In this document: piece after piece, positions 9,809-10,265 of the stretch | Position numbering within the stretch: the first letter of the stretch is position 1 | Layout of the letters: every line of letters begins with the position of its first letter | Source of the DNA: Tridacna crocea | Lineage: Eukaryota > Mollusca > Bivalvia > Cardiida > Cardiidae | Assembly: GCA_943736015.1 (NCBI GenBank) | Contig: OX031059.1 | Location: forward strand, 20,888,501-20,952,500 | Direction: 5' to 3' | DNA length: 64,000 nucleotides | Program-made: the position numbers and the translations under genes | The notes under the pieces: generated by a model | The model's database searches: none | Seen by the model: the letters and a program-made list of their open reading frames with translations, nothing else | What the model was told of the DNA's origin: nothing

Positions 9809-9962
9809 CTGTATTGCTATCATACAATATTCTGGATGTGATTATCCGTCCACAAATAGAGAAAAATTTCTCTAGTTCTCTTTGAGTATAACATTTTGGC
9901 AGGCCACAAATATACAAGTTGGCCCCTTTAATGCCCTCACAACTTGGCCTTGCAACTGAAAC
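9809..9962 (-). CDS. elav: ELAV/Hu-like protein, RRM2 exon copy b (downstream of the tandem pair)
   Basis: 154 nt, phase 0 in, phase 1 out, the same as copy a. Encodes [20 protein letters not shown] then [20 protein letters not shown] and [12 protein letters not shown]. Acceptor choice ttttttag/GTTTCAG is fixed by alignment with copy a; donor is ATACAG/GTCAGA. Relative to copy a it gains cysteines at codons 8, 19 and 24, has R/E in the first helix and keeps GRI before the ITSRIL strand. No stop or frameshift is present and both splice sites are intact, so it looks functional, not a dead duplicate. The exon completing RRM2, and RRM3, are not found in bases 1-9800 and should lie left of the window. 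Confidence 0.93.
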
Positions 9963-10111
9963 CTAAAAAATAATACAAAAAATGACATGAAAAAAAAATT
10001 TTTTTCTATCCCTAACATTTATCTTGTAAGAGAGCGAGGAAGCTGGGGGTAGTGGTGGGGGTTATGTTATGTTACTGTTTTACAACAGAATAATTATCAT
10101 TGAGGCTATAC
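9963..10111 (-). other. elav: 149-nt intron between the two RRM2 exon copies
   Basis: Separates the tandem exons. Joining copy a to copy b would break the reading frame, so in a normal message this stretch is either part of a longer intron or skipped with copy a. It holds A/T runs and no recognisable repeat, unlike the other introns of the gene. Confidence 0.8.
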
Positions 10112-10265
10112 CTGTGTTTTGATCATAAAGAATTCTCGAAGTAATGATTGTTCCGCAACATGAAAACATTTTTTCCAAATCCAATTGTGTAAGAGACTTG
10201 GGCAAACCACTTATGTAAAGATTTGCTCCTTTTATACTTTCACTGCTCGGGCGGGCCAACGACAC
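10112..10265 (-). CDS. elav: ELAV/Hu-like protein, RRM2 exon copy a (upstream of the tandem pair)
   Basis: 154 nt, phase 0 in and phase 1 out. Encodes [20 protein letters not shown] then [20 protein letters not shown] and [12 protein letters not shown], which is the inter-RRM linker and first half of RRM2 (RNP2 strand LYISGLP). Acceptor is tttgtttcag, donor ACACAG/GTATAG. A second exon of identical length and phase lies 149 nt downstream (9809-9962) and encodes the same segment with 12 differences in 51 codons. Using both would shift the frame, as would using neither, so one is chosen per transcript. In this copy the helix reads [13 protein letters not shown], less like the usual ELAV (K/R)ELE..F...GRI than copy b. 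Confidence 0.95.

What the first reader, a model, noticed from the sequence alone, without database searches (positions are those of the whole stretch)
9809..10265. Tandem duplicated, phase-locked RRM2 exon in an ELAV gene: likely mutually exclusive RNA-recognition switch
Seen: two exons of exactly 154 nt, 149 nt apart, both phase 0 in / phase 1 out, both open, both with consensus splice sites, encoding the same linker plus first half of RRM2. They differ at 12 of 51 codons, mainly in helix 1 ([13 protein letters not shown] versus [13 protein letters not shown]) and around RNP2 (LYISGLPKS versus LYICGLPKC), while ITSRILYD is unchanged. Known: in ELAV/Hu proteins RRM1 and RRM2 together grip U-rich RNA. 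Inference: using both or neither exon would shift the frame, so the gene must choose, giving two isoforms with different RRM2 surfaces or RNA preference. I am not aware of this arrangement in ELAV genes.
Basis: partly seen in the sequence, partly recalled or inferred. Interest (0 to 1): 0.88.

Follow-up and report, generated by a model that had tools for sequence, protein, structure and literature searches.

The report
Swappable ELAV exon shared by molluscs
A mollusc gene for the neuronal RNA-binding protein ELAV carries two interchangeable versions of one exon, so it can probably make two proteins that differ in half of one RNA-binding domain, and clams, oysters, snails and octopus appear to share the arrangement.

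Summary
On the minus strand, exons A (10265-10112) and B (9962-9809) are both 154 nt, 149 nt apart, phase 0 in and phase 1 out, differing at 58 nt but only 12 of 51 residues. Splicing A to B gives a stop eight residues past A. The unit is the ancestral J3-J5 exon of ELAV genes (passages of PMC2529313).

New here: database models show A-type and B-type forms with matching flanks in Octopus bimaculoides and Pomacea canaliculata, and in Crassostrea (A partner from unnamed contigs); a Mya arenaria model carries A then B. Of 237 protein pairs with near-identical flanks, 8 differ by four or more residues in this exon; all 8 are A/B pairs whose named members are molluscs. The pair is thus probably functional and ancient, though 52 columns do not exclude repeated duplication.

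Best reading: frame-locked mutually exclusive exons, as in vertebrate U2AF1. The RNA-recognition switch is unproven: differences lie mainly in helix 1, its loop and the linker; RNP2 Tyr and strand 2 never change. Ten paper searches found no description. No RNA-seq junctions were seen.

The parts
42317..42385 (-). candidate alternative first coding exon, 3' part (KTSKILPLTSIPFVYQNPFAQMQ, then GT); start not delimited
   Evidence: tblastn with Sinanodonta protein P0199, 79% over 24 aa, E 2.5e-7; boundary by sequence
27591..27828 (-). ELAV exon: N-terminal part and first half of RRM1; ends in phase 1
   Evidence: tblastn with seven ELAV proteins (four named bivalves, three from unnamed contigs), 73-96% identity; AG/GT boundaries
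18202..18305 (-). ELAV exon: second half of RRM1 (104 nt), ends in phase 0; donor shared by A and B
10112..10265 (-). exon A (154 nt): linker and first half of RRM2, A type (Leu28, neutral residue 39, Gln49)
   Evidence: A-type relatives in bivalves, gastropods and Octopus
9963..10111 (-). 149-nt intron between A and B; branch-point-like A at 20-25 nt from the 3' splice site, about 123-128 nt from the donor
9963..10007 (-). exon B acceptor tract with three runs of six or more U; possible ELAV/Hu site
   Evidence: 2 of 3657 AG-ending 45-mers of the minus strand, this one included, have three such runs (statistic chosen after looking)
9809..9962 (-). exon B (154 nt): linker and first half of RRM2, B type (Arg28, Arg39, Ser49)
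   Evidence: B-type relatives in Mya, Crassostrea, Dreissena, Patella, Haliotis, Liolophura, Pomacea, Octopus, Bradybaena, Candidula

Best explanation
The two 154-nt exons are functional, mutually exclusive alternatives in a bilaterian-type ELAV gene. SHOWN: tandem homologous exons, equal length and phase, purifying selection between the copies, a stop after double inclusion, and A/B isoform models in other molluscs. INFERRED: each mRNA takes A or B; transcripts with both, and probably with neither, lose the frame and are removed by nonsense-mediated decay, as in U2AF1. The result is two ELAV proteins with the same RRM1, hinge and RRM3 but a different linker and RRM2 helix 1 and helix-strand loop. 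Because strand 2 and the RNP2 aromatic position are unchanged while helix 1 and a conserved basic residue (Lys/Arg39 in most B, neutral or acidic in A) change, I think the exon mainly alters ELAV's contacts with partners or multimers, or the strength of RNA binding, rather than the sequence it reads. The pair most likely arose once, before bivalves, gastropods and cephalopods separated.
For: Equal length and phase, 37 of 58 nt changes at third codon positions, dN 0.21 with dS not computable, i.e. saturated. Stop eight residues past A on double inclusion. Octopus X3/X5 differ, from the shared RRM1 second half on, only at 7 residues of this exon; Pomacea X3/X2 in this exon at 6; C. angulata X2 and P0192 (unnamed contigs, same backbone) at 11. 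A Mya model holds A then B in the window's order. 8 of 237 near-identical-flank pairs differ by 4 or more here, all A against B, named members all molluscs, 4 of the 8 with at least one unnamed contig. All five A/B pairs differ at columns 28, 39 and 49; 0, 91 and 35 of 20000 simulations of five independent pairs reach three such columns under three weightings. The tree parts A from B on one branch (support 70/78; 92% of 200 bootstraps). The exon boundaries match ancestral junctions J3 and J5 in position and phase (passages of PMC2529313). U2AF1 precedent: introduction of PMC5224494.
Against: No junction reads were available; 'isoform X' entries are database models whose support I did not see. 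Several species show only A in the listed models (for example Gigantopelta X1 and X5, Mytilus edulis X3 and X12), though 90% clustering can hide B. The 52-column tree is weak: sister placement of the two copies is rejected for Pomacea (p 0.0035) and barely for Crassostrea (0.049), but not for the window (0.145) or Octopus (0.114), and a duplication confined to bivalves is not rejected (p 0.277); the Mya test did not run. With one bivalve at a time the shared-column test gives 0.2-0.7% for Mya or Crassostrea but 4-6% for the window. The rows of the tree were my selection (50 segments, out of 272 proteins and the window), and A and B labels of unpaired species are mine and rest partly on the same residues. 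Exceptions: Dreissena B has Gln39, Pomacea, Bradybaena and Candidula B keep Ser19, Nucula is mixed. No competing intron pairing was found. The downstream exon is outside the window, so the skipping product was not read.
Confidence: 0.84

Rival explanations
1. One copy is a dying or never-used duplicate and only the other is spliced in.
For: Both donors score below the RRM1b donor (4.9 and 7.0 against 9.5, recalled matrix); Nucula's one listed form is A-like with a B-like cysteine; some species list A only.
Against: No stop or frameshift in 154 nt of either copy although 58 nt differ, 37 at third positions; B-type exons occur in 11 sequences of the tree set, from bivalves, gastropods, a chiton and Octopus.
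Confidence: 0.07
2. Bivalves, gastropods and cephalopods each duplicated this exon independently, and selection drove the copies the same way.
For: A duplication inside bivalves is not rejected (p 0.277), nor sister placement of the Octopus pair (0.114) or window pair (0.145). With the window pair as the bivalve, 1287 or 818 of 20000 simulations match the three shared columns.
Against: Pomacea pair sister rejected (p 0.0035); A and B separated by one branch in 92% of 200 bootstrap trees; Leu28 in 20 of 20 A rows and 0 of 11 B rows, basic residue 39 in 10 of 11 B rows and 0 of 20 A rows (labels partly circular).
Confidence: 0.2
3. The switch changes RNA sequence preference of RRM2.
For: Column 19, at the end of strand 1 two residues after the RNP2 tyrosine, is Ser in A and Cys in B in 4 of 5 pairs; column 39 next to strand 2 is basic in B of all 5 pairs and not in A.
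Against: The RNP2 tyrosine and columns 40-47 never differ in the five pairs; most differences are in helix 1, its loop and the linker, and helix 1 lies on the face away from RNA (recalled for RRMs).
Confidence: 0.3
4. Collapsed haplotypes or an assembly duplication rather than a real tandem pair.
For: None found; tandem duplicates are a common assembly artefact in heterozygous bivalves (general knowledge).
Against: 38% nucleotide divergence between copies and the same order in the Mya model.
Confidence: 0.01

Closest known systems
Vertebrate U2AF1 exons 3/Ab (U2AF35a/b); abstract and introduction read (PMC5224494)
   Same: Tandem duplicated exons of one length not divisible by three, encoding part of an RRM-like domain of a splicing protein; few residues differ (RNP2, helix); both or neither gives stops and NMD
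   Different: 67-nt exons, vertebrates, a UHM that binds protein; here 154 nt, molluscs, a canonical RRM2 of ELAV, unrelated duplication
Bee elavl2 alternative exons 3a, 4a-d; passages read (PMC8553928)
   Same: Single ELAV gene diversified by alternative splicing touching RRM2
   Different: Insertions, skipping and microexons in the RRM2 loop and hinge; the term 'mutually exclusive' does not occur in that paper; no swap of half a domain in the passages seen
ELAV exon structure survey (Samson 2008); passages read (PMC2529313)
   Same: The duplicated exon is the conserved exon between junctions J3 and J5, with the same codon phases
   Different: Eleven genomes; 'mutually exclusive' and 'mollus' do not occur in it
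OGDH exons 4a/4b; only the start of the abstract seen in search listings (PMC7969005)
   Same: Mutually exclusive tandem exons
   Different: Enforced by distant branch points near the donor of the intervening intron; here branch-like sites 20-25 nt from the 3' splice site fit, and several AGs follow the upstream ATAAC motifs
Drosophila fne mini-exon (exon-activated rescue); passages read (PMC9631114)
   Same: Splicing of an ELAV-family exon changes when another ELAV-family protein is lost
   Different: Mini-exon promoting nuclear localisation; autoregulation is only a guess here

Membership tests
ELAV/Hu family | Sequence of RRM1 and RRM2 above family cut-off | tested here: met
   Full-length relatives with either exon type (P0124 B, P0197 A, P0122 B) score 483-494 bits against a TIGR01661 cut-off of 279; the window's RRM1 exon is 73-96% identical to seven ELAV proteins. 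The window gene itself is partial and was not scored against TIGR01661
ELAV/Hu family | Conserved junctions J2 (phase 1), J3 (phase 0), J5 (phase 1) | tested here: met
   Exon ends at 27591, 18202, 10112/9809 compared with PMC2529313 passages
ELAV/Hu family | Second half of RRM2, hinge and RRM3 | tested here: inconclusive
   Not found in bases 1-9808 by tblastn; the gene appears to run off the window
Frame-locked mutually exclusive tandem exons (U2AF1 type) | Adjacent homologous exons of equal length and phase, length not a multiple of 3 | tested here: met
Frame-locked mutually exclusive tandem exons (U2AF1 type) | Double inclusion gives an early stop | tested here: met
Frame-locked mutually exclusive tandem exons (U2AF1 type) | Skipping both gives an early stop | not testable with these tools
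   Downstream exon outside the window
Frame-locked mutually exclusive tandem exons (U2AF1 type) | Each exon occurs singly in otherwise equal mRNAs | tested here: inconclusive
   Met as protein models in Octopus and Pomacea, and in Crassostrea with an unnamed A partner; no reads seen, and none for the window's species
Dscam-type exclusion by competing intron RNA pairing | Intron complementarity beyond chance | tested here: not met
   Duplex energies at z -0.17 and -0.43 for 400-nt flanks (79 and 65 of 200 shuffles as low); farther sites and conservation not tested
Steric exclusion (branch point too near the upstream donor) | Only branch point within about 50 nt of the donor (limit recalled) | tested here: inconclusive
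   Branch-like sites 123-128 nt from the donor exist; ATAAC motifs at 44-49 nt exist but are followed by AGs before the real 3' splice site

The most novel reading that the evidence does not exclude
Molluscs have kept, for over half a billion years (divergence date recalled), a two-state ELAV made by swapping half of RRM2 within one gene, doing by splicing what vertebrates (HuB/C/D/R) and flies (elav/fne/Rbp9) do with gene copies. ELAV protein itself throws the switch through the U-runs at exon B's acceptor, so the A/B ratio reads out neuronal ELAV dose.
Probability: 0.15. Interest if true: 0.8.

Novelty: new variant of a known kind. Interest (0 to 1): 0.62.

Why it matters
ELAV/Hu proteins are standard neuronal markers and splicing regulators, and the isoforms I met in the papers seen alter linkers, loops and the hinge rather than exchange RRM core. 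A mollusc-wide swap of half of RRM2 would mean that 'ELAV' in octopus, oyster or snail is two proteins, which matters for marker antibodies, CLIP data and knockdowns. It also gives a natural experiment, two RRM2 versions on one backbone kept side by side, to ask what parts of an RRM other than its RNA-contact surface do.

Tried and rejected
Competing intron pairing: A-B intron against 400 nt on either side, no signal beyond shuffles. Distant-branch-point (OGDH) and steric exclusion: not favoured by the intron's AG layout. Decay of one copy: contradicted by the third-position bias and conservation. NG86 gave no dS (saturated); LWL85 and YN00 failed with a domain error. The RRM1a donor score used a wrong coordinate and is discarded. 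Tree-based dating is only partly decisive; the 50 rows were picked by me, and the bootstrap had not settled. Annelids: Owenia, Paralvinella and Phascolion look A-like and Dimorphilus B-like at the marker columns, but I saw no annelid with both, so an origin before Mollusca is left open. Flatworm forms (Hymenolepis, Schistosoma, Rodentolepis and others) were listed, and two Hymenolepis and two Macrostomum rows were put in the tree, but they were not pursued. The three protein searches listed 120 of 2194, 73 of 73 and 120 of 272 hits; unlisted hits were not examined, and the database shows only 90% cluster representatives, so isoforms of one gene are largely hidden and a missing form means little.

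Paper searches: ten answered, on ELAV with mutually exclusive exons, exon duplication, molluscs, oyster, Octopus, bees and fne, on mutually exclusive exons with RRM or molluscs, and one on HuR contacts. In the listings none described this pair; subscription papers are not in that library. Besides the papers cited, passages of PMC6915785 (bee elav) were seen. HuR RNA-contact residues did not appear in the passages shown of PMC12570136, so contact statements are recalled.

Full report
WHAT IS THERE. On the minus strand the window holds the 5' part of an ELAV/Hu gene: a candidate first exon ending at 42317, the first half of RRM1 at 27828-27591, the second half at 18305-18202, and two versions of the next exon, A at 10265-10112 and B at 9962-9809. 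A and B are 154 nt each with a 149-nt intron between them. They differ at 58 nt and at 12 of 51 residues; of the nucleotide differences, 15, 6 and 37 fall at codon positions 1, 2 and 3. dN is 0.21 and dS could not be computed, i.e. is saturated, so the copies have long diverged under purifying selection. The rest of RRM2, the hinge and RRM3 were not found in bases 1-9808 (tblastn); the gene presumably continues past base 1. tblastn with A and B finds no third copy in the window.

WHAT THE EXON IS. Its boundaries (between codons; after the first base of a codon) are junctions J3 and J5 of Samson's survey of ELAV genes (passages of PMC2529313), so the unit duplicated is one ancestral exon. Each copy by itself passes the Pfam RRM_1 threshold. 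Splicing A to B shifts the frame and meets a stop eight residues past A.

RELATIVES. Three searches of a 5.8-billion-protein collection gave 272 different listed proteins (120 of 2194, 73 of 73 and 120 of 272 hits listed). Forms that differ in this exon: Octopus bimaculoides X3 and X5, on a contig of the same length, identical from the second half of RRM1 on except for 7 residues of this exon; Pomacea canaliculata X3 and X2, on a contig of the same length, 6 residues of this exon; Crassostrea angulata X2 against P0192, a protein from unnamed contigs (label lgn) with the same backbone, 11 residues; and P0200/P0201, both from unnamed contigs, with gastropod-like flanks. A Mya arenaria gene model contains A, eight extra residues, then B, in the window's order; the extra residues look like a gene-model patch over the intron, while another Mya model has A alone (P0011). 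B-type forms whose A partner was not listed: Patella, Dreissena, Haliotis, Liolophura, Candidula. A-type forms whose B partner was not listed include Gigantopelta X1 and X5 and Mytilus edulis X3 and X12; clustering at 90% may hide partners. Outside this exon the Octopus and Pomacea pairs also differ by insertions in the RRM1 loop, and the Octopus pair at the N-terminus.

CONTROL. Of the 272 proteins, 264 had full flanks; 237 pairs had flanks with at most two differences, and 8 of them differed by four or more residues in the exon. All 8 are A against B: P0122 (C. angulata) with P0192 (unnamed) and with P0193 (Saccostrea); P0124 (Octopus X5) with P0197 (Octopus X3), P0196 and P0198 (both unnamed); P0069/P0207 (Pomacea); P0200/P0201 (both unnamed); and, across species, P0205 (Bradybaena) with P0211 (Candidula). 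So every named member is a mollusc, two pairs are from one named species, and four have an unnamed member. The other 229 pairs, drawn from lists rich in vertebrates, differ by fewer than four residues.

ONE ORIGIN OR SEVERAL. A tree of 50 segments that I picked (47 different; A/B labels mine) separates 20 A from 11 B rows by one branch, with support 70/78 and in 92% of 200 bootstrap trees; 19 rows carried no label. Holding the two copies together is rejected for Pomacea (p 0.0035), marginal for Crassostrea (0.049), and not rejected for the window (0.145) or Octopus (0.114); a duplication inside bivalves is not rejected (0.277); the Mya test did not run. All five pairs (window, Mya, Crassostrea, Pomacea, Octopus) differ at columns 28, 39 and 49, which 91 and 35 of 20000 variability-weighted simulations (0 of 20000 unweighted) match if the five are independent. 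Taking one pair per class, the figure is 44 to 147 of 20000 with Crassostrea or Mya (four shared columns), but 818 to 1287 with the window pair (three). I favour one origin before the molluscan classes parted, at about 0.75.

HOW IT LIKELY WORKS. A two-way choice is enforced at least by frame: both, and presumably neither, leads to premature stops and decay, as reported for U2AF1 (introduction of PMC5224494). No competing intron pairing was found. The 45 nt before exon B hold three runs of six or more U, seen in 2 of 3657 AG-ending 45-mers of the strand, its own included; ELAV/Hu proteins bind U-rich RNA (passage of PMC9631114), so self-regulation is a testable guess, chosen after looking. In an AlphaFold2 model of the Mercenaria orthologue (mean pLDDT 72, ten-residue blocks over this exon 73-93) the exon spans residues 124-175: strand 1 138-142, helix 1 150-157, strand 2 163-170. 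Column 28 falls in helix 1, column 39 just before strand 2, column 49 after it. Columns 40-47 and the RNP2 tyrosine never differ in the five pairs; columns 25-39 hold 6, 7, 7, 3 and 5 of the 12, 13, 11, 6 and 7 differences and the linker (1-13) 3, 4, 2, 1 and 0. At column 39 B is basic in 10 of 11 rows, as in HuR and HuD, and A in 0 of 20. This points to a change in partner contacts or binding strength more than in the RNA word read, but no assay tells.

VERDICT. A real, conserved, probably mollusc-wide mutually exclusive exon pair in the core of ELAV RRM2; a new variant of a known arrangement, not described in the open papers searched, though its isoform models are in databases. Transcript evidence in the window's own species, which is unnamed and by its closest named matches a bivalve, is missing.

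Noticed in passing
window 42385-42317 (minus): Candidate alternative first coding exon of the ELAV gene, matching the N-terminus of the Sinanodonta protein P0199, 14 kb upstream of RRM1.
   Followed up: partly
window 10007-9963 (minus): Three runs of six or more U at exon B's acceptor and none in the 45 nt before exon A: a possible ELAV self-regulation site.
   Followed up: partly
window-wide, e.g. 5015-4955 and 13965-13895: Many copies of a palindromic, MITE-like repeat built on GGAGAAAATGC...GCATTTTCTCC (24 and 22 occurrences of the halves).
   Followed up: no
window 29860-29687 (minus): A weak tblastn side hit whose letters resemble the end of a Tc1/mariner transposase (resemblance recalled, not searched).
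   Followed up: no
database proteins P0122, P0124, P0197, P0207 and others: Mollusc ELAV isoforms carry varied short insertions between the two halves of RRM1, a second site of splicing diversity.
   Followed up: no
database proteins P0205, P0216 (Bradybaena), P0096, P0217 (Babylonia): Two ELAV models on contigs of different length in each of these gastropods; in Bradybaena one carries an A-type and the other a B-type exon.
   Followed up: no
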